In this document: piece by piece, positions 6,711 to 16,837 of the stretch
Layout of the letters: the number at the start of each line of letters is the position of its first letter
How positions within the stretch are numbered: position 1 is the stretch's first letter
Assembly: GCA_913775025.1 (NCBI GenBank)
Contig: CAJYJW010000032.1
Span: forward strand, 1-39,849
Source: an uncultured Sphingomonas sp.
Lineage (GTDB): Bacteria > Pseudomonadota > Alphaproteobacteria > Sphingomonadales > Sphingomonadaceae
Length of the DNA stretch: 39,849 nucleotides
Direction: 5' to 3'
Translations under genes and position numbers: made by a program
The notes under the pieces: model-generated
The model's input: the letters and a program-made list of their open reading frames with translations, nothing else
The model's database searches: none
What the model was told of the DNA's origin: nothing

Positions 6711-6892
6711 ATCTGCCGCTAAATCTCCCTTATCTCCTCAAGATTGCAGGTCAGGGAGGCCGGACTGACAAGAGTACGCGGCTTCGATCGACCTACCTTA
6801 TGTCACAGCTTCCGAGACGTGGAGACCGGACTGTAGCTGTCTGGAAAACGGACCGGGCATGCTCGCGATTGCCCGCGCAGGAGGGGAAAGAG

Positions 6893-8158
6893 ATGTCCAC
6901 CACGTTCAAGGACGACGTTGCCGTGCCGCCCGGTCTCTCCGCCGACCGGATCGTCGATATAGACATCTATTCGCCGCCCGGACGCGAGAAGGACTTCTAC
7001 GCCGCGTGGAAGACGTTGCAGGATAATTCCCCCCCGATCGTTTGGACGTCTCGTAACGAGGGTCACTGGATCGCGCTTTCGGGCGAGGTGCTCGCAGCGG
7101 TGCAAGGCGATCCAGAGCGTTTTTCGAACCGGATCATCGTCATACCGCGCTCGGTCGGCGAAAAGCATGCGCTGATCCCGACGACAATCGATCCACCCGA
7201 GCACCGCCCGTACCGTAGATTGCTTAACGATGGTCTCTCGCTTTCAAAGATCCGACATTTACACACGGCGATCGCCTCTGTCGCAGATGAGCTTATCGGC
7301 GGGTTCGTCGGGTTCGGTCGATGCGATTTCACCGCCGAGTTCGCACGCCTTTTTCCGATCCGCATCTTCATGTCGCTGGTCGCACTGCCGATGGCTGACG
7401 CGGATCGCCTGTGTTTCCTCGCCGAATGCATGACCAGACCGAACCCGCCACTGCCGTTCGAGGACGCCAAGCAAGCTTTCTACGCGTTCCTTGCGCCCGT
7501 CGTCGCCGAAAGGCGGGGCGGCTCCGGCGAGGACATCATCAGCGCGATCGTGAATGCGGATATCAACGGCCGCAAATTGAGTGATGAGGAGGCGCTGTCG
7601 CTGTGCACGCAGTTGCTGATCGCCGGCGTAGATACGGTGGTGAACGTGCTCGCATTCATCATGCTCGAACTCGCGCGCGATCCGGCGTTGCAGGAACGGC
7701 TCGCCGGCCTCACCCGCAGCGGGTTGCTTGCCGCGACGAACGAGCTGTTCCGGCGCTTCGGCTTCGTGACGATCGCGCGAACCGTACGCGAGGACATGGA
7801 GTTTCACGGCGTCCACTTGAAGGCCGGCGACCTCGTCTGCGTGCCGACGCAGGTCCACGGGCTCGACGAGCGGATCAATGCCTGCCCGCTCTCGATCGAC
7901 CTCGATCGACGCGGCGCGCGTCATTCCGCCTTCGGCAGCGGGCCGCACATGTGCCCGGGGCAGGAACTCGCACGCGCCGAGGTGGCGATCATGCTGGAAC
8001 GCTGGTTCGCCGCGATACCGCGCTTCCATGTCGGCGCGGACGCCGACCTGCGCAATCTGGCCGGCATTGTTCCACAAATCGCCCGTCTCACGCTTGAATG
8101 GGATGTTCTGCCTATGCCTTCGCATGATGGGCAGGGGGCGATCGAAGAGCTGGCTTGA
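6893..8158 (+). CDS. Cytochrome P450, P450cam (CYP101)-like
   Basis: ATG at 6893 after GGAGGGG; I-helix LLIAGVDTVVNVL, ExxR in NELFRRF, heme motif SAFGSGPHMCPGQELAR; FHGVHLKAGD and GLDERINACP resemble P450cam. Confidence 0.92.
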   Translation: MSTTFKDDVAVPPGLSADRIVDIDIYSPPGREKDFYAAWKTLQDNSPPIVWTSRNEGHWIALSGEVLAAVQGDPERFSNRIIVIPRSVGEKHALIPTTIDPPEHRPYRRLLNDGLSLSKIRHLHTAIASVADELIGGFVGFGRCDFTAEFARLFPIRIFMSLVALPMADADRLCFLAECMTRPNPPLPFEDAKQAFYAFLAPVVAERRGGSGEDIISAIVNADINGRKLSDEEALSLCTQLLIAGVDTVVNVLAFIMLELARDPALQERLAGLTRSGLLAATNELFRRFGFVTIARTVREDMEFHGVHLKAGDLVCVPTQVHGLDERINACPLSIDLDRRGARHSAFGSGPHMCPGQELARAEVAIMLERWFAAIPRFHVGADADLRNLAGIVPQIARLTLEWDVLPMPSHDGQGAIEELA

Positions 8159-8641: not shown

Positions 8642-9715
8642 TCAGCGCGAAGAGTTGTCGAAGAAAGTGCTCGAGAGATCCAACGGAGCCCAACTGCCAT
8701 TGTTGTTCAGGCCTTCGTAAGCCCCCCCAACTTCGCTCGAAAGATTGTGGGAGCTAGCCCAGTCGAAGACGAAGCGCCGGTGCGCGATCTTCCATTCGCC
8801 GTCGCGCTTGACGAAGCGGTCCAGATAGCGCCCGCCGGTGATCGTCTCCTGCGGATCATCGCCAAGCGTGGCACTATAAGCGATAACGTAGGTTTCGCCG
8901 ACCGCTTCATCGCCTCGGATCTCGAAATATTCATTGGCCAGGCTGTGAAAACAGGAGCGGAAATTCGCGCGCACTGCGGCGACGATGCGCTGCGAGAAAT
9001 CCGGCGCCTTGCCGTCGATCACGCCGGTAACGACGTCCGCGTCCTCATGGAACACGGAGGCCAGTAAAGCTGCGTCACCACGATCGACACCGCGCGCATA
9101 TGTGGCAACGAGATCGTGAAGGGCCTGCTTGGCTAAAGCGTCATCGAGCGCACGCATGATCACGTCTCCCTTGCTATCACTGAAGGCGGAACCGGAGATA
9201 AAGTCATGCGAGGGATCGTGATCGCGATGCGCGCCACGGAGCATGCCAAGAAGCGTTATCTCAGCGTCATCACGATTGATATTCCAGTCCAGAACGTAAG
9301 TGCGATGCGCTATGCGCCAGCCTGCCGTGCAACGGACGTGCCGGTCGAGATAACGGCCACCAATCCAGCGCTGGCGATCCGGTCCGGCCGGTTCGGGCGT
9401 ACGCATATAGGCTATGACGTAGCTTTCCGAACGCGCCTCATCTCCGTCGATGCTCACCAGCATGTTCGAGATGCGGTGGAACGTAACGTCACCGTTCGCC
9501 ATGGCATCGGCGAGGATCGTGGCGAAATCAGCCGCAGGGCCGTCGAACAAACCGTAAGCGACCGTGGCGCCGGGCGCGTAGGCCGACGCTAGAAGCGCGC
9601 GGTCGTTGCGGTCCACCCCGCGGCTGTGCCGGGCAAGATTGGTGCGTATCTCGCTGGTCGCCACGAGGGCGGCAATCGCCTTATCGCGGCGCTGCGCAGG
9701 CTCGACGACCGTCAT
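8642..9715 (-). CDS. Tandem SnoaL-like (NTF2 superfamily) protein, two domains in one ORF
   Basis: Two homologous halves: SRGVDRNDRALLASAYAP...GGRYLDRHV...GWRIAHRTYVLDW and ARGVDRGDAALLASVFHE...GGRYLDRFV...EWKIAHRRFVFDW. Confidence 0.8.
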   Translation of the reverse strand: MTVVEPAQRRDKAIAALVATSEIRTNLARHSRGVDRNDRALLASAYAPGATVAYGLFDGPAADFATILADAMANGDVTFHRISNMLVSIDGDEARSESYVIAYMRTPEPAGPDRQRWIGGRYLDRHVRCTAGWRIAHRTYVLDWNINRDDAEITLLGMLRGAHRDHDPSHDFISGSAFSDSKGDVIMRALDDALAKQALHDLVATYARGVDRGDAALLASVFHEDADVVTGVIDGKAPDFSQRIVAAVRANFRSCFHSLANEYFEIRGDEAVGETYVIAYSATLGDDPQETITGGRYLDRFVKRDGEWKIAHRRFVFDWASSHNLSSEVGGAYEGLNNNGSWAPLDLSSTFFDNSSR

Positions 9716-9932
9716 ATGTCGTTGCCGGTGCAATGCGTGTGCGAATATGGCGGATGGGCGCGATGTGCATCACCTGAAAGGGATTTTGCGCGCCAAGACT
9801 TTTGGAAGCCGTCGCGACAGTGATGGCGGCCCACCGGGCCGGTTCTGTCATTGCGGCCAACGATCTCCGCGCCGTTCCCGCCGCTCGCGCAAGCAGGACG
9901 AAAGGCATGCTTCCTCGACGACAGGGTCACGC

Positions 9933-10685
9933 TCATCGCATCGTCTCTCCGTTGTCGATCGTGATCGCCGTCCCGGTGATCTGCCGCGATTCATCAAAAC
10001 CGAGGAAGAGGACAAGGTTGGTCACGTCGCGCGGGCTGCCTTGCCCGTGGTTAGCGATCTGATCCGGCCCCGACTCGCTTTCCGGCAATTGCGCCAGTGC
10101 CGCACGGGTCATCGGCGTGTCATGGGCGCCAGGGATGATCGCGTTCACGCGAATGCGGCTACCCTGTTCCTGGCAGAACATCGCGGTCGATCGGGTGAGC
10201 GCGATGATCGCGCCCTTCGCCGCGGAATATCCCGGGATTAAGCCGACCCCTTTCGTTGCCGCCACCGATGAAACATCGATGATCGACCCACCATCTGTTC
10301 GGGCCATCAGTGGTATGCCGTGGCGACAGCCAAGGAAGGTGCCGATCGTCCTGACGTCAATCTGCAATTGCCAGTCTTCAAGGGCACAATCGACGATGGA
10401 ACCGAAGCGGACGAGGCCGGCATTGTTGACGAGAATGTCCAGCCGCTCGAAACGGCGTTCCACCTCAGTCATCGCCAGACCCCGCGCCGTGTCCGATCGC
10501 ACATCGGATTGAATCGCCGATGCATCCGGCAGGCGTGCCGCCGCCGCATGGACCGCCGCGCCGTCGATGTCAGCGAGGATCACCCTTGCGCCTTCTGCCG
10601 CCAGCAACGCGGCGTCTGCGAGCCCGTATCCCGACGCCACGCCCGTCACCAGCGCCACCTTCCCCGCGACGCGCCCATCCGCCAT
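9933..10685 (-). CDS. Short-chain dehydrogenase/reductase
   Basis: KVALVTGVASGYGLADA, LDILVNNAGLV, YSAAKGAIIALTRS, RVNAIIPG, RQITGTAITIDNG. Confidence 0.92.
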   Translation of the reverse strand: MADGRVAGKVALVTGVASGYGLADAALLAAEGARVILADIDGAAVHAAAARLPDASAIQSDVRSDTARGLAMTEVERRFERLDILVNNAGLVRFGSIVDCALEDWQLQIDVRTIGTFLGCRHGIPLMARTDGGSIIDVSSVAATKGVGLIPGYSAAKGAIIALTRSTAMFCQEQGSRIRVNAIIPGAHDTPMTRAALAQLPESESGPDQIANHGQGSPRDVTNLVLFLGFDESRQITGTAITIDNGETMR

Positions 10686-10695
10686 CTTGCCTTCT

Positions 10696-13062
10696 CTACA
10701 TATAGTTGGCGCGCAGCGTGATGCCGAAGCGCCGCGGCGGCTGATAGTTGGCGAACCCGGCGAAGCCGGGCGAGTCATAGACGCTGGCAAGATAGCGGTT
10801 GTCGAGCGCGTTCTTCACCCAAACGCTAACCGTCAGCCGGTTGCCCGGCAGCGTCCAGTCGAGATTGGCGTCGACGATGTGCGTAGGCTGGATCAGCGAC
10901 CGCGGGGTGTTCAGCACGTTGGTGAAGAATTTGGATGCGGTGTAGCTGTAGAGGGCATTGGCGGTCACTTTATTTTCGCCAAGCTCGATCGTGTAGGTCG
11001 CGCCGGCATTTGCCGACCACTCGGGCGAGTTCTGCAAACGCGCGCCCTTGAGGTTGACGGTCTGCAACGTTAGCGGATTGAGATACGGGAAGTCTTTGTA
11101 CTTCGCGTCAAGATAAGCGAGCGAGCCGGTCACCGTCAGGCCGTTTACCGGCGCTGCTGTCGCCTCAAGCTCGAAGCCCTTGATGATCGCCTTGCCGGCA
11201 TTCTGGATCGTATTGCCCTGTACCGGACCGGTCGGCGTGTTGACGAAGTAGATTTGGGCGACCTGCAGATCGCGATAGTTGGTGTGAAAACCCGCCAGGT
11301 TCACGCGCAGCCGGCGGTCGAGCAGATCGGCTTTGACACCCACCTCGATGGTGTCGACCTTCTCCGGATTATAAGGGCCGATGTCGCTCGGCAAACCGAT
11401 CCGGCCGACGAACCCGCCCGATTTGAACCCGCGTGCCCAGTTGCCGTAGGCAAGGATGCGATCCGTGATCTTCCAGTCGAGCCCCAGTTTCCACCCGACG
11501 TTGTTCCAGGACTTGGAGTCGACAGGATTGATCCGGCTGAGTTGTAACGCGTTGGTGCCCTCGAAATCGATCAGGCCCGCGGGGTTCAACAGATTGTCCA
11601 GCGACGCGTCCATCCTTGTCCGTTCATACGTATAACGGATACCGGCCTGGGCGCGGAGCGTATCGGTAATGTCGAAATAGTTCTGCAGAAAACCTGAAAC
11701 AGAATAATTTTCCTGGTCCTGCCGGTTTACCTGCATCAATCCGGGATTGGCGAAGGTCAGGCGGAAATCCTGCTGCAGGAAATAGTGATCCTTGATGTAG
11801 AACGCACCGGCAATGGCGTTCCACCAGTCCGTTATTCGAGCACTGGTCCGCAACTCCTGCGAGAATTGCCAGGCGCGGGTGCGGCGGCGCGTGTCGGCGA
11901 GCGAAAGGGGCGTGCCGTCCTGATCGGTGTATTCGAAGACGTTGACCTTCTTATATCCCGTAATCGACGTGATGTCGCCGATCGCGGTGTCGCGCAGGTT
12001 GAGCGTCAGCGTGCCCTTATAGGTGTTCAGGTTGGATACGTCCGGTACCGAATTGTTGGCCGAGAAATACTTGTCCGGCGCGTCGCAGCGCTGGCCGGGC
12101 TGGCAGGGTGATTGATACATGTTCTGTACGCCGGGGGGCACGTAGGTGATCTCGCCCGGGTAGGCGCCGTTGACCACGATCGGCGCGCCGTTGCGACCGC
12201 GATCATATTCGCCGCTGGCGATCGCATCGAAGGTTGACGACGGGCTCCACTTCAATGTGCCGCGCACGACCTGTACGTTACGCTTCCCCATCTTGCTGCC
12301 GTCCACGACGTTCGTGACCCAGCCATTATATTCGTCGTGCGAGGCGGCGATGCGCGCCGAAAGGGTGTCGCTCAGCGGCGTATTGACAACGCCATTGACG
12401 TTGAAGCCGCCATAATTGCTGAGCGTCGCCTCGCCCTTTGCGCCGAAGCGATCGGTCGGCAGAGCATTGACAACGTTGATGACGCCTCCGGTCGTGTTCG
12501 CTCCAAAGAGCGTGCCCTGCGGTCCGCGCAGCGTCTCGATGCGATCGATGTCGAGCAGATCGACAAGCGCGCCGGTCGAAAAGAATTGCGGCACGCCGTC
12601 GACGACGATCGACACGGTGTTGCCAGCGTAGGGATCAGGTTCGATCACGCCGATACCGCGGATCGTGAACACCGCCGAGTTCGGCGTGTTCGAAAAATTG
12701 TTGATCTGGACGTTAGGCGTCGTGCCTTGCAGCCCTTGGATCGTCACCGCGTGGAGGTTGGCCACTGCGGCGCCACTCACCGCAGTAACAGAAATCGGTA
12801 CGTTCTGGAGATTCTCGGCCCGCTTCTGCGCGGTGACGACGATGTCCTGAAGGCCGGTGGTTCCAGCGCTCGTATCGCTGATCGCCGCAGGGCTACCAAC
12901 CGCACGCAACTCGGTGACCGGGGTGCCTGCCGCCCGACCCACCTCGGGCGCGACAGGCGGCGCGGGCTGCGGTGTCGCGACAGCTGGCTGCGCCGCGACT
13001 GTTCCGGCCGTCAGTAGTGCGGCGACAGCGACCGACGAACGAAAAAGGCCCACACGGTCCAT
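10696..13062 (-). CDS. TonB-dependent receptor
   Basis: Signal peptide; TonB box DIVVTAQKR; plug NVPISVTAVSG, RGIGVIEPDPYAG, ETLRGPQGTLFGANTTGGVINV; start 13062 preceded by GGGGGAGG. Confidence 0.95.
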   Translation of the reverse strand: MDRVGLFRSSVAVAALLTAGTVAAQPAVATPQPAPPVAPEVGRAAGTPVTELRAVGSPAAISDTSAGTTGLQDIVVTAQKRAENLQNVPISVTAVSGAAVANLHAVTIQGLQGTTPNVQINNFSNTPNSAVFTIRGIGVIEPDPYAGNTVSIVVDGVPQFFSTGALVDLLDIDRIETLRGPQGTLFGANTTGGVINVVNALPTDRFGAKGEATLSNYGGFNVNGVVNTPLSDTLSARIAASHDEYNGWVTNVVDGSKMGKRNVQVVRGTLKWSPSSTFDAIASGEYDRGRNGAPIVVNGAYPGEITYVPPGVQNMYQSPCQPGQRCDAPDKYFSANNSVPDVSNLNTYKGTLTLNLRDTAIGDITSITGYKKVNVFEYTDQDGTPLSLADTRRRTRAWQFSQELRTSARITDWWNAIAGAFYIKDHYFLQQDFRLTFANPGLMQVNRQDQENYSVSGFLQNYFDITDTLRAQAGIRYTYERTRMDASLDNLLNPAGLIDFEGTNALQLSRINPVDSKSWNNVGWKLGLDWKITDRILAYGNWARGFKSGGFVGRIGLPSDIGPYNPEKVDTIEVGVKADLLDRRLRVNLAGFHTNYRDLQVAQIYFVNTPTGPVQGNTIQNAGKAIIKGFELEATAAPVNGLTVTGSLAYLDAKYKDFPYLNPLTLQTVNLKGARLQNSPEWSANAGATYTIELGENKVTANALYSYTASKFFTNVLNTPRSLIQPTHIVDANLDWTLPGNRLTVSVWVKNALDNRYLASVYDSPGFAGFANYQPPRRFGITLRANYM

Positions 13063-13193: not shown

Positions 13194-13205
13194 GGACGAT
13201 CGTCC
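13194..13205. promoter_or_regulatory. Candidate TetR operator, site 1 (TonB-receptor promoter region)
   Basis: Perfect palindrome GGACGATCGTCC, ~130 bp upstream of the TonB-receptor start. Confidence 0.7.
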
Positions 13206-13219
13206 TACTGAACTAACGG

Positions 13220-13906
13220 CTAGGTGGGGTCGGCCAGCGCCAGATTGCCCGCCGTGAAGAAGGTGGCGGCCGGATCAAGCAGTTGGTCGATGCGGTCGGC
13301 GTCGAAATGTCCGGCCGATATCGAGTCGAGGAAGCCAGCGTCCTGCACGATGAAAACGAGCGCAGATTCGGTTAGGTAGAGGCCGATCTCGAACTGCTGC
13401 TGGTTCAGCCCGGGAAGGCCAATACGCAGGCGGTCGGCGAAAAGGTCGGACACCGCCTTCAGGCTTGCGAGCGCGGGCGTTACTTCCGGCACGCGATAAT
13501 GGCTCATGAACATCGATGTCATTCGGATATAGCTGCGCAGGCCGCGATAATCATCGACGCAGGCGCGCAAGAAGGGCGTCAGGAACGCCTTGACGATCTC
13601 GCGCGGATCGTCCCCCGCCTCGGCCAGTCCTTCGGCTACGGCATCGCGCAGTACCGGGAGGCGGCGATCGACGACCGCTTGCACCAGCGCCTCCTTCGAA
13701 GGAAAATAATGGTTGATGAGGCCCAGCGCCGCACCTCCACGAGCTGAGATCTCGCGCATCGACGCGCCATAATAGCCACGTTCTGAAAAGACCGCCTCAG
13801 CCGCATCCATGATCGCCTCGCGCCGTGCCTCGCCCTTCGCCCCACGGCGGCGCGACGGGGCGGGTGGCTGCACCGGAATTTTTTCGGCGTCGCTCACGAT
13901 GTCCAT
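13220..13906 (-). CDS. TetR/AcrR-family transcriptional regulator
   Basis: N-terminal HTH AIMDAAEAVFSERGYYGASMREISARGGAALGLINHYFPSKEALVQAVV; start chosen at MDIVSDAEK, alternative at 13954. Confidence 0.92.
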   Translation of the reverse strand: MDIVSDAEKIPVQPPAPSRRRGAKGEARREAIMDAAEAVFSERGYYGASMREISARGGAALGLINHYFPSKEALVQAVVDRRLPVLRDAVAEGLAEAGDDPREIVKAFLTPFLRACVDDYRGLRSYIRMTSMFMSHYRVPEVTPALASLKAVSDLFADRLRIGLPGLNQQQFEIGLYLTESALVFIVQDAGFLDSISAGHFDADRIDQLLDPAATFFTAGNLALADPT

Positions 13907-13963
13907 TCGGCGGACCCACGCATCGTCCGAACACGCCACCCGCGGCCTCGCCATAGTGCTAGT

Positions 13964-13977
13964 AGGACGATCGTCCT
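13964..13977. promoter_or_regulatory. Candidate TetR operator, site 2 (tetR/Rieske divergent region)
   Basis: AGGACGATCGTCCT palindrome; AGTAGGACGATCGTCC is shared, inverted, with the 13194 site. Confidence 0.72.
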
Positions 13978-14057
13978 GTTTGAGTGCATATTCAAGACAA
14001 ATCTCCATACGATCCGGCGCGGCATCCGGGCGGAGCAGCATAGTCAGGAGAGCGTTC

Positions 14058-15398
14058 GTGACCAACATCCTCCGCCATCCGCTGACGCTCGACGGGCGTG
14101 ACGCTACCCAGTTGCGCGGCGATCCGATCACGGGCGATCGCTATACCTCGCCTGCATTCGCGAAAGCGGAATGGGATCACATGTGGACCAAGATCTGGCA
14201 CGTCGCCGGACGGCTCGCCGACATTCCCGAGAGCGGCGACTATCTTGTCCACGATTTCATGCATGAGAGCGTGATCTGCGTGCGGCAAGACGATGGCTCG
14301 ATCCGTGCCTTCTATAATGTCTGTGGGCATCGCGGCCAGCGGCTTGCAGCGAACAGCGCCTTCGCGCCCGACGGCTTCCGCTGCCCGTATCATGGCTGGC
14401 TATGGGGCATCGACGGCATCCTGAAGGATCTTCAGGACCCGGAGGACTTTCCACAGGGAAATCCTTGCGGCAAGCTTAGCTTGGCCGAGCTGACGTGCGA
14501 TACCTGGGGCGGCTTTGTCTGGTACTCGCTGGCTGAAAAGCCCCAGCCGCTGCGTGAGTATCTCGCCCCGCTGCCCGATCTCTATTCCAACTACCCGATG
14601 GATACGGCGGTCCTCGTCTTTGGGCTCAAAATCAGGCTCAACACCAATTGGAAGTTCGCGACAGACAACTTCTCCGAAAGCTATCACACCCGGACCGCAC
14701 ATCCGCAGGTGCCCCCGTGGATCGATCAGGACGTCGATAGCGCGCGACACGAAATGTACCCGCAGGGGCATGGCCGAACGGTGCAGCCGATGCGCCCCTC
14801 GCTTACCGATCGCCTGCCGGACGGCGAGCCGCACCCGTTCGACTATATTCTGCGTCAGTGGAACATCGATCCGGAGAGCTATTCGGATTTCGAAACCAAG
14901 GCGATGCAGGGCTGGCTCGATCTCAAGGCCGCGAAGAAGCGGCTGTGGCGAGAGCGCGGTTTTGTTCACTACGAGCGCATGAACGATGAGGAGCTGACCG
15001 ACAGTCCGCACACCGTCATCTTCCCCAACGTGACCTTGTCCTACCTTCCGGATAATTTGATCTTCTTCCGTACCGAGCCGCATCCGGACGACCCGAACAA
15101 GTGCACGTTCGATTTGTGGCTGATGGCCTATCCGGTCGAGGGCATGGACGAGGTGGAATCGATCATGGCCGGCCCACGCCCGCTGCGGGAGGCGGAGATC
15201 GAGGTGCGCGACTTCGACGGTGGAGCCGGCGTGCCCGAGATCGACGGGCAGATCGTTTATCAGGACATGATGCTGGCCGAGAACCAGCAGCGCGGCATGC
15301 ACTCGCGCGGCTATCGTGACAGCTATCTGGCCGCGCAGGAGACCCGCGTGCGTTTCTTCCACGAGGTGTTGAACGATTATCTGGAGGGGCGGCGCTGA
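14058..15398 (+). CDS. Rieske aromatic ring-hydroxylating oxygenase, alpha subunit
   Basis: Rieske motif CGHRGQRL...CPYHGW; mononuclear-iron region DNFSESYHTRTAHPQ; GTG start after AGGAGAG. Confidence 0.92.
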   Translation: MTNILRHPLTLDGRDATQLRGDPITGDRYTSPAFAKAEWDHMWTKIWHVAGRLADIPESGDYLVHDFMHESVICVRQDDGSIRAFYNVCGHRGQRLAANSAFAPDGFRCPYHGWLWGIDGILKDLQDPEDFPQGNPCGKLSLAELTCDTWGGFVWYSLAEKPQPLREYLAPLPDLYSNYPMDTAVLVFGLKIRLNTNWKFATDNFSESYHTRTAHPQVPPWIDQDVDSARHEMYPQGHGRTVQPMRPSLTDRLPDGEPHPFDYILRQWNIDPESYSDFETKAMQGWLDLKAAKKRLWRERGFVHYERMNDEELTDSPHTVIFPNVTLSYLPDNLIFFRTEPHPDDPNKCTFDLWLMAYPVEGMDEVESIMAGPRPLREAEIEVRDFDGGAGVPEIDGQIVYQDMMLAENQQRGMHSRGYRDSYLAAQETRVRFFHEVLNDYLEGRR

Positions 15399-15820
15399 TG
15401 GCGTTCACCGGGCCGCTGGAGGATCGCGTTGCGATCCACGAACTCGTCGCGAGCTACGGCGATGCCGTCACCGGCCGCGACGGCGATGCATGGATCGACA
15501 ATTGGGCCGAGGAGGGCGCGGTGTGGAAACTGCCCGCCATCCCCGGTATGGAGCGGGTGGAAGGCCGCGAGGCGATCCTCGCCGCATGGCTCGCGGCAAT
15601 GCCGGGTTGGCCGACCCAGATCAATTTTCAGCGCTGCGGCGCGATCATGGTCGAGGGCGACCGTGCGCACGGCCATACCTACACCGATGAGCTCAATCTC
15701 GACGCGGCAGGCAACTGGGAACGCTGGCTGAACCGCTATGACGACGAGTGGGTAAAGCGCGACGGACGCTGGCGCTTCGCCAGCCGCAGCCTTACCGTGC
15801 TCGCGATACGGCCGGGGTGA
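15398..15820 (+). CDS. SnoaL-like / small-subunit-like protein
   Basis: DRVAIHELVASYGDAVTGRDGDAWIDNWAEEGAVW...WLNRYDDEWVKRDGRWRFASRSL; TGATG overlap with the Rieske gene. Confidence 0.82.
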   Translation: MAFTGPLEDRVAIHELVASYGDAVTGRDGDAWIDNWAEEGAVWKLPAIPGMERVEGREAILAAWLAAMPGWPTQINFQRCGAIMVEGDRAHGHTYTDELNLDAAGNWERWLNRYDDEWVKRDGRWRFASRSLTVLAIRPG

Positions 15821-15852
15821 GGCACGACTAGGCTAAGAGTTTGTTTCAAAAC

Positions 15853-16110
15853 TTACGCTGAGCGAGCGATGCGCCTGACGAGCGCCATCGCCGCGGCAGC
15901 GTAGAGGAAGGCAGTGGCGGAGCCTATCGTAGCTTCGAAGCCCTCGGCCATCCGCCGGTTTCGACCGAGCTAGGCGAAGGTCCGTTCGACGACCCAACGC
16001 CGCGGGTGGACGGTGAACCCGATCTGCCCAGCGATCTTGCGCACGATCTTCATATCGATCGAGGTGGCATCGCTGACCCGTGCGGCATTGTAGGCGCTGT
16101 CGGCGAACGC
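15853..16110 (-). mobile_element. IS5-family transposase C-terminal fragment with in-frame stop
   Basis: AFADSAYNAARVSDATSIDMKIVRKIAGQIGFTVHPRRWVVERTFA*LGRNRRMAEGFEATIGSATAFLYAAAAMALVRRIARSA; TAG replaces the expected Trp codon. Confidence 0.85.
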
Positions 16111-16119
16111 CTTGGCGAC

Positions 16120-16547
16120 GAAGGGATGCCGCTGCCGGGATTCCGGCAAGTCTTCGAACGTGAAGCCGGACAGGAGCGGCAACCCGTCGAGTTCCCCGAG
16201 CCTGAAGCCGCCGAGGACGAACTGCTCGATCGTGCGCAGCCGCTGAGAGCCGTCGACCATCTCCAGCTTCCCGCTCTCCGGTTTCTCCCAGAAGAAGAGG
16301 AGGGGATCGGCAGGCCCATGACGATCGATTCGATGAAGCGAGATTTGCGCTTGCCCTCTTAGGTGAACTCGCGCTGGTAGCCGGGCACCTCGAACTCGCC
16401 AGCGTGCATCTTGGAGGCAAGCAGCTCGACGGAATACTCGGTAAGATAGAAGTCGATGTGCCGCGACTGTTCGACAATCTGAGCCTCGGCCGCGGCCTTC
16501 ATGTCCTCGGTGATCGCCGACTGCTCCCGCGGTTGTCTCGCCACCAT
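16120..16547 (-). pseudogene. DUF262 (GmrSD-like N-terminal) gene fragment
   Basis: GEFEVPGYQREFT* then EGKRKSRFIESIVMGLPIP, frameshift, LLFFWEKPESGKLEMVDGSQRLRTIEQFVLGGFRL; broken by a stop, a frameshift and an IS5 junction. Confidence 0.75.
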
Positions 16548-16837
16548 AACCCCCTGTTCCGCCGCCAACTTCTCGGCCTCGGTCACATCGCCTATCCATA
16601 GGGCGCACGCCGTCCAGACGGTAGGGTCCAAGAAGCGCTTCGCCGCTAAAGGTGCATGGGTCATCGATGAGAGCAGATGGACGCGCGCTACGCAGCCGTC
16701 GGAGCCCCCCGGGGGAACGCCCACGTTCTAATGAATGGCTCAGTCTGTTCCCGGCTGGTTCAGCATGCTTATTCCCCATCCGTTACCCATGTAGCGTGGG
16801 CAACGGCGGATTTCTGCTGCTAAGTGCTTGATAATCC

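What the first reader, a model, noticed from the sequence alone, without database searches (positions are those of the whole stretch)
13194..13977. Same 12-bp palindrome at two promoters flanking the island TetR gene
Seen: GGACGATCGTCC at 13194-13205, between tetR and the TonB-receptor start, and AGGACGATCGTCCT at 13964-13977, in the tetR/Rieske divergent region. The shared 16-mer AGTAGGACGATCGTCC is inverted between sites. Knowledge: TetR repressors bind palindromes near their own gene. Inference: this regulator controls itself, the Rieske-SnoaL pair and the TonB receptor-SDR operon as one local substrate-responsive regulon. I saw no copy upstream of the P450.
Basis: partly seen in the sequence, partly recalled or inferred. 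Interest (0 to 1): 0.65.

Follow-up and report, generated by a model that had tools for sequence, protein, structure and literature searches.

The report
TetR operator pair controlling Rieske cluster
Two identical DNA palindromes flank a regulator gene in a sphingomonad catabolic gene cluster, and related species keep versions of them in front of the same oxygenase gene, so they are very probably the switch sites through which the regulator controls itself, the oxygenase and the outer-membrane uptake protein.

Summary
GGACGATCGTCC lies at 13194-13205 and 13965-13976, inside an inverted 16-mer. These are the only exact copies in the 3.57 Mb own genome.

A 24-bp profile built only from relatives' Rieske promoters picks site 2 as the best match in the own genome. 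Site 1 is not separable from coding background by score alone. Palindromes of the type GGWCRNNYGWCC lie upstream of the Rieske gene in 13 of 14 loci carrying a TetR_C_30-type TetR near a Rieske oxygenase. Only 2 of 14 Rieske orthologs lacking a nearby TetR have one, and both sit in genomes that carry this TetR elsewhere. The TonB-promoter site has counterparts in a congener and, degenerate, in a second genus with the same gene order.

Best reading: an autoregulated TetR repressor (TetR_C_30 subgroup, only distantly PsrA-like) that couples uptake (TonB receptor-SDR) to oxidation (Rieske-SnoaL). Ligand, repression and binding are untested. No convincing copy precedes the P450.

This is a new regulator-operator pair of a well-known kind, in a recurrent sphingomonad module for which I found no description in the open-access papers searched. 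It is solid and useful, and not surprising in mechanism.

The parts
13194..13205 (.). Operator site 1: perfect 12-bp palindrome GGACGATCGTCC between the tetR stop and the TonB-receptor start
   Evidence: second-best place in the window with a window-blind PWM (14.5 bits, next 9.2); 11.8 bits with profile R1 in the whole genome
13964..13977 (.). Operator site 2: 14-bp palindrome AGGACGATCGTCCT in the tetR/Rieske divergent region; extended site CTAGTAGGACGATCGTCCTGTTTG 13959-13982
   Evidence: best match in the whole own genome to the window-blind profile R1 (17.6 bits, E 0.016); best place in the window (25.8 bits)
13194..13209 (+). Left arm of the inverted 16-mer (GGACGATCGTCCTACT); the extra 4 nt face tetR
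13961..13976 (+). Right arm of the inverted 16-mer (AGTAGGACGATCGTCC); the extra 4 nt face tetR
13220..13906 (-). TetR-family regulator, 228 aa (TetR_N PF00440 + TetR_C_30 PF17939), the proposed binder of both sites
   Evidence: homologs accompany the operator
14058..15398 (+). Rieske ring-hydroxylating oxygenase alpha subunit (446 aa, GTG start), proposed target of site 2
   Evidence: orthologs of 68-79% identity with promoters examined
15398..15820 (+). SnoaL-like protein (SnoaL_4), overlapping the Rieske stop: probably same operon
10696..13062 (-). TonB-dependent receptor, proposed target of site 1
   Evidence: orthologs in the same cluster in L110-L113 and L166 and on plasmids
9933..10685 (-). 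SDR oxidoreductase 10 nt after the TonB-receptor stop: probably same operon
8642..9715 (-). Double SnoaL-domain protein downstream of the SDR (about 220-nt gap); possible further member
   Evidence: adjacent to the homologous tetR in G002 (L043)
9890..9913 (.). Weak third, half-site-like match CAAGCAGGACGAAAGGCATGCTTC between the SDR and the double-SnoaL gene; marginal
   Evidence: 9.2 bits, third in the window, close to the next unrelated match at 8.8

Best explanation
The two palindromes are operators of the adjacent TetR_C_30-type TetR regulator. A TetR dimer binds the symmetric core GGACGATCGTCC at site 2, in the shared tetR/Rieske promoter region, and at site 1, in the TonB-receptor promoter region just past the tetR stop. 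With no ligand it would hold back its own gene, the Rieske-SnoaL operon and the TonB receptor-SDR operon. A substrate or pathway intermediate would release it, switching on uptake and first oxidation together. Shown here: the sites, their uniqueness in the genome, and the conservation of related palindromes at homologous promoters in line with the presence of this TetR. Inferred: binding, repression, ligand release, and the operon structure from close gene spacing.
For: Only two exact copies in 3.57 Mb, both flanking tetR. TetR_N and TetR_C_30 domains. Window-blind profile R1 from relatives ranks site 2 first in the own genome, and the strongest other own-genome hits examined (C189, C138, C217, C237) lie inside or across long reading frames. 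Variants, several changed in both arms, sit between tetR and Rieske in homologous loci: GGTCGATCGACC in N. resinovorum pSA1 (L071), GGACAATCGTCC (L078), GGTCGTTCGACC (L168), GGTCGAATGACC (L167), GGTCATTCGACC (L174), GGACGATCGTCC (L154), and GGTCGATCGTTC (L173, L176). Upstream of Rieske: 13 of 14 TetR_C_30-linked loci against 2 of 14 without a nearby TetR, with 10.6% of random 250-bp stretches as background. Both of the '2' (L083 in G002, L086 in G145) lie in genomes that hold this TetR elsewhere. In three genomes whose sites were not used to build R1, the best listed match is at a Rieske or TonB promoter: G002 (TonB), G084 (Rieske, next to a TetR) and G145 (Rieske). G002 keeps GGTCGATCGTCC about 115 nt before its TonB-receptor start. 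G583 (L166) has the same order and orientation as the window (Rieske+, tetR-, TonB-), with a divergent-region site GAACGATCGTAC and a degenerate second copy just past tetR.
Against: No binding or expression data. The GGWCRNNYGWCC pattern was fixed after seeing some of the loci it was counted on. Site 1 alone does not stand out by score: several matches elsewhere in the genome, mostly coding, score as well or better. No sigma-70-like promoter was found at either site, though sphingomonad promoters are poorly covered by that consensus. In four genus-g60 genomes a very similar palindrome precedes Rieske although the adjacent TetR is of another subfamily, so the core is not exclusive to TetR_C_30. 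The 49%-identical TetR locus of G002 (L043) shows no convincing site next to itself.
Confidence: 0.84

Rival explanations
1. Only site 2 is a working operator (tetR and Rieske). Site 1 is a duplicated or inverted leftover of a rearrangement that turned tetR round, and the TonB operon is controlled otherwise.
For: In most relatives with tetR next to Rieske, tetR has the same strand as Rieske with one site just past the tetR stop (L071, L078, L110-L113, L154, L168). In the window tetR is reversed, and the extra 4 nt of the inverted 16-mer face tetR at both ends. No operator-like site was found between TonB and tetR in L110-L113.
Against: Site 1 keeps the core without a mismatch. G002 has a site before the TonB receptor of a homologous cluster. 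G583 has the window's orientation and a degenerate second site.
Confidence: 0.15
2. The palindromes are bound by a different regulator encoded elsewhere, and the neighbouring tetR is coincidental.
For: Genus g60 loci keep AAAACAGG[T/A]CGATCGACCTGTTTT with a TetR of another subfamily.
Against: Presence of the site follows presence of the TetR_C_30 homolog, including a Rieske gene of only 29% identity (L154). One site lies in the tetR's own upstream region.
Confidence: 0.06
3. Chance repeat of a GATCG-rich palindrome in a GC-rich genome.
For: About 1.2 exact copies expected per genome; repeated palindromes of any sequence within 1.1 kb in 8 of 150 simulated windows; 5 matches with up to 2 mismatches in the window are what chance gives.
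Against: Both copies non-coding, flanking tetR, with a shared 16-mer; recovered by a matrix and a profile built without the window; conserved at homologous promoters.
Confidence: 0.02
4. A terminator or other structural element at the tetR 3' end (site 1).
For: Site 1 starts 14 nt past the tetR stop.
Against: A perfect palindrome without a loop, no T-run; the terminator scan found none; an identical copy sits upstream of the gene.
Confidence: 0.01

Closest known systems
TetR-family local repressors controlling themselves and a divergent catabolic operon (general paradigm, e.g. KstR in steroid catabolism; own knowledge)
   Same: TetR_N HTH, short palindromic operator in the divergent promoter region, neighbouring catabolic genes
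   Different: Different C-terminal subgroup and operator sequence; ligand unknown; second exact operator at an uptake-receptor promoter
PsrA (Pseudomonas), TetR-family regulator of fatty-acid oxidation
   Same: Top NCBIfam hit over 28-220 of 228 aa (54.7 bits); [quoted passage not shown]
   Different: Far below the curated PsrA cut-off (54.7 against 300 bits); PsrA binds C/GAAAC N4 GTTTG/C (PMC5722320), not GGACGATCGTCC; the regulated genes differ
PheR of Sphingobium sp. SHPJ-2 (IclR family)
   Same: A sphingomonad repressor whose loss raises both a ring-hydroxylating operon and TonB/TonB-dependent receptor transcripts (PMC13273656)
   Different: IclR family, core GCAACG, TonB effect genome-wide and possibly indirect
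Rieske/TonB/SDR/SnoaL/P450 catabolic clusters on sphingomonad megaplasmids (N. aromaticivorans pNL2, N. resinovorum pSA1, Sphingobium sp. TomTYG65 pTomTYG65a)
   Same: Homologous Rieske (71-77%) and TonB receptors (53-58%), with TetR genes among the neighbours
   Different: Gene order varies; on pNL2 no TetR_C_30 relative was detected beside the Rieske gene and no operator within 2 mismatches before it

Membership tests
TetR family of transcriptional regulators | N-terminal TetR_N helix-turn-helix | tested here: met
   PF00440, 55.8 bits against a cut-off of 24
TetR family of transcriptional regulators | Known C-terminal ligand/dimerisation domain | tested here: met
   PF17939 TetR_C_30, 63.3 bits against 26.3
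TetR family of transcriptional regulators | Palindromic operator close to its own gene | tested here: met
   Perfect palindromes on both sides of tetR, conserved in relatives
TetR family of transcriptional regulators | Binds the operator and represses; released by a small ligand | not testable with these tools
   Needs EMSA, footprinting and expression data
PsrA | NCBIfam PsrA equivalog cut-off (300 bits) | tested here: not met
   54.7 bits
PsrA | C/GAAAC N4 GTTTG/C operator (motif from PMC5722320) | tested here: not met
   Sites read GGACGATCGTCC
TetR_C_30-Rieske operator module of sphingomonads (as defined in this report) | TetR_C_30 regulator within about 4 kb of a Rieske oxygenase gene, with GGWCRNNYGWCC (at most 1 mismatch) upstream of the Rieske gene | tested here: met
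   Window 0 mismatches; 13 of 14 such loci (pattern partly post hoc)

The most novel reading that the evidence does not exclude
The operator is older than its regulator: a GGWCGATCGWCC-type operator in front of this Rieske gene is kept while the regulator beside it was exchanged for a TetR of another subfamily in genus g60 (AAAACAGGWCGATCGWCCTGTTTT with a TetR lacking TetR_C_30), and in the window the inverted operator repeats let tetR flip relative to its target.
Probability: 0.12. Interest if true: 0.5.

Novelty: new member of a known kind. Interest (0 to 1): 0.36.

Why it matters
It assigns an operator and a likely regulon to a previously unassigned TetR subgroup that recurs with Rieske oxygenases in sphingomonads, a group important for degrading recalcitrant compounds. 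It predicts joint control of outer-membrane uptake and first oxidation, and it gives a short defined DNA sequence with which the regulator's ligand, and through it the unknown substrate of the cluster, could be found.

Tried and rejected
Chance: rejected by whole-genome uniqueness and cross-species conservation, although the within-window statistics alone were not decisive. Terminator: no hairpin with a T-run. Sigma-70 promoter at the sites: no consensus match. Distant regulon members in the own genome: the GGTCGATCGACC copies in C189 lie inside reading frames, and the strongest other profile hits examined lie inside or across long frames (C159 was not resolved). P450 as a regulon member: no site before it. 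Genome-contig search with the TetR protein gave only distant relatives of 31-48% over partial matches. DNA-level search of plasmids with the tetR region: no match. Papers: no report of this operator found; the library holds only open-licence papers.

Full report
Observation. The sequence holds GGACGATCGTCC at 13194-13205 and at 13965-13976, the second inside AGGACGATCGTCCT at 13964-13977. The two places share a 100% complementary inverted 16-mer, 13194-13209 and 13961-13976. In the whole own genome (3,566,400 bp in 346 contigs) these are the only exact copies. About one exact copy per genome is expected by composition, so the count is not the surprise. Both copies lying within 783 bp, in non-coding DNA on the two sides of one tetR gene, is. 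Within the window alone the evidence would be only suggestive: 8 of 150 simulated windows contained some repeated palindrome at that distance.

Surroundings. tetR (13220-13906, minus) encodes a TetR_N plus TetR_C_30 protein. Divergent from it are a Rieske oxygenase alpha subunit (14058-15398, plus) and a SnoaL protein whose start overlaps the Rieske stop. On the tetR strand follow a TonB-dependent receptor (10696-13062), an SDR 10 nt behind it, and a double SnoaL protein. Site 2 is 57 nt from the tetR start and 80 nt from the likely Rieske start. Site 1 is 14 nt past the tetR stop and 131 nt before the TonB-receptor start. This is what operators of one local regulon would look like. No sigma-70 consensus promoter was detected, so exact promoter overlap is not shown.

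Comparison with relatives. The TetR is rare: matches at E <= 1e-25 occur in 6 of 401 family genomes including the own one, and further ones came from an order-wide draw. Rieske orthologs of 68-79% identity are commoner. Scanning their promoters found palindromes of the same design, several changed in both arms: GGTCGATCGACC between tetR and Rieske on N. resinovorum pSA1 (L071), GGACAATCGTCC in G390 (L078), GGTCGATCGTTC within ATAACGGGTCGATCGTTCCGTTAT in G063 (L075/L101), and AAAACAGG[T/A]CGATCGACCTGTTTT in genus g60. Symmetric co-variation of the arms is expected of a dimer-bound operator.

Window-blind test. From the relatives' sites alone (13 sequences, window left out) I built a 24-position sequence profile. 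In the own genome its best match is site 2 (17.6 bits, E 0.016). Site 1 scores 11.8 bits, level with several matches elsewhere, most of which lie inside or across long reading frames. A simple weight matrix from seven relatives' sites ranks site 2 first (25.8 bits) and site 1 second (14.5) of all places in the 39.8-kb window, with the third at 9.2. In three genomes whose sites were not in the profile, the best listed match falls on a Rieske or TonB promoter: G002 (before the TonB receptor of a cluster with a 77% Rieske), G145 (before a 73% Rieske), and G084 (AACTGGACGATCGTCCAGTT, between the end of a TetR related to ours and a Rieske of only 29% identity). In G203, G246, G262, G315, G064 and G020, which have Rieske relatives but gave no TetR match at E <= 1e-25, the best profile matches lie in reading frames and away from the cluster. 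G262 does have a weaker TetR relative (34%), and the Rieske gene beside it carries GGTCGATCGTTC in its promoter.

Later loci. The order-wide TetR search brought new loci after the profile was made. The profile itself recovered only one of them (L168, 11.3 bits). Reading the tetR-Rieske gaps showed GGTCGTTCGACC (L168), GGTCGAATGACC (L167) and GGTCATTCGACC (L174), as well as GGTCGATCGTTC in three loci of a more distant TetR-Rieske pair (L172, L173, L176). Counted with GGWCRNNYGWCC and at most one mismatch, 13 of 14 TetR_C_30-linked Rieske promoters have a site, 2 of 14 Rieske orthologs without a nearby TetR, and 3 of 9 with a TetR of another subfamily. Random 250-bp stretches have one in 10.6%. 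The nominal binomial probability (2.6e-12) is too optimistic because the centre of the pattern was relaxed after seeing some loci and because loci are related. The one counted for L043 is probably chance. The two positives without an adjacent TetR are in G002 and G145, which carry this TetR at another place.

The TonB arm. Site 1 is exact but is the weaker half of the claim. Support comes from G002, where GGTCGATCGTCC lies about 115 nt before the TonB-receptor start, and from G583 (L166), the only other locus found with the window's order and orientation (Rieske plus, tetR minus, TonB minus; receptor 64%, Rieske 77% identical). L166 has GAACGATCGTAC in the divergent region and AACCAGAACGTCTGTACGATTA just past tetR, which matches the first site at 15 of 22 positions. 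In genus g60 no such site was found between TonB and tetR.

Mechanism. Most likely a TetR dimer binds both palindromes and holds back its own gene, the Rieske-SnoaL operon and the TonB-SDR operon until a substrate or intermediate binds it. Binding, direction of control and ligand are inferred from the TetR family. The P450 has no site here. In genus g60 and on pNL2 the P450 lies downstream of the TonB receptor on the same strand, so in the window it seems to have been moved away from the shared promoter.

What is known. The protein passes the TetR tests but not the PsrA one (54.7 against 300 bits), and its operator differs from PsrA's C/GAAAC N4 GTTTG/C (PMC5722320). A sphingomonad repressor joining ring hydroxylation with TonB-system expression exists in another family, PheR of the IclR family (PMC13273656). 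I found no paper describing this operator or module, but only open-licence papers could be searched.

Open points. The g60 loci keep almost the same operator next to a TetR lacking TetR_C_30. Whether that TetR reads the site, and whether the operator outlived a regulator exchange, cannot be told from sequence. The window's reversed tetR between inverted operator copies is compatible with a past flip, and that too is only a possibility.

Noticed in passing
L110-L113 (genus g60), Rieske promoters: A conserved 24-bp palindrome AAAACAGGNCGATCGNCCTGTTTT stands between Rieske and a TetR of another subfamily; in further loci (L087, L090, L091, L095) the outer arms AAAACNGG...CCNGTTTT are roughly kept while the centre changes.
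   Followed up: partly
window 13194-13976: tetR lies between inverted operator copies and is turned round relative to Rieske compared with most relatives, compatible with a past inversion of the tetR segment.
   Followed up: partly
window 6890-8158: The P450, 53-58% identical to P450s that follow the TonB receptor on the same strand in L110-L113 and on pNL2, stands alone on the opposite strand here and has no operator.
   Followed up: partly
window 9890-9913: Weak half-site-like match to the operator matrix in the gap before the double-SnoaL gene.
   Followed up: no
window 15833-16779: Overlapping minus-strand frames just behind the SnoaL gene with a weak IS5-family transposase match (E 2.8e-4), probably a degraded insertion sequence at the edge of the cluster.
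   Followed up: no
L172, L173, L176: A second, more distant TetR-Rieske pair (TetR about 30%, Rieske about 40% identical) with GGTCGATCGTTC close before Rieske, including Sphingobium sp. TomTYG65 plasmid pTomTYG65a.
   Followed up: partly
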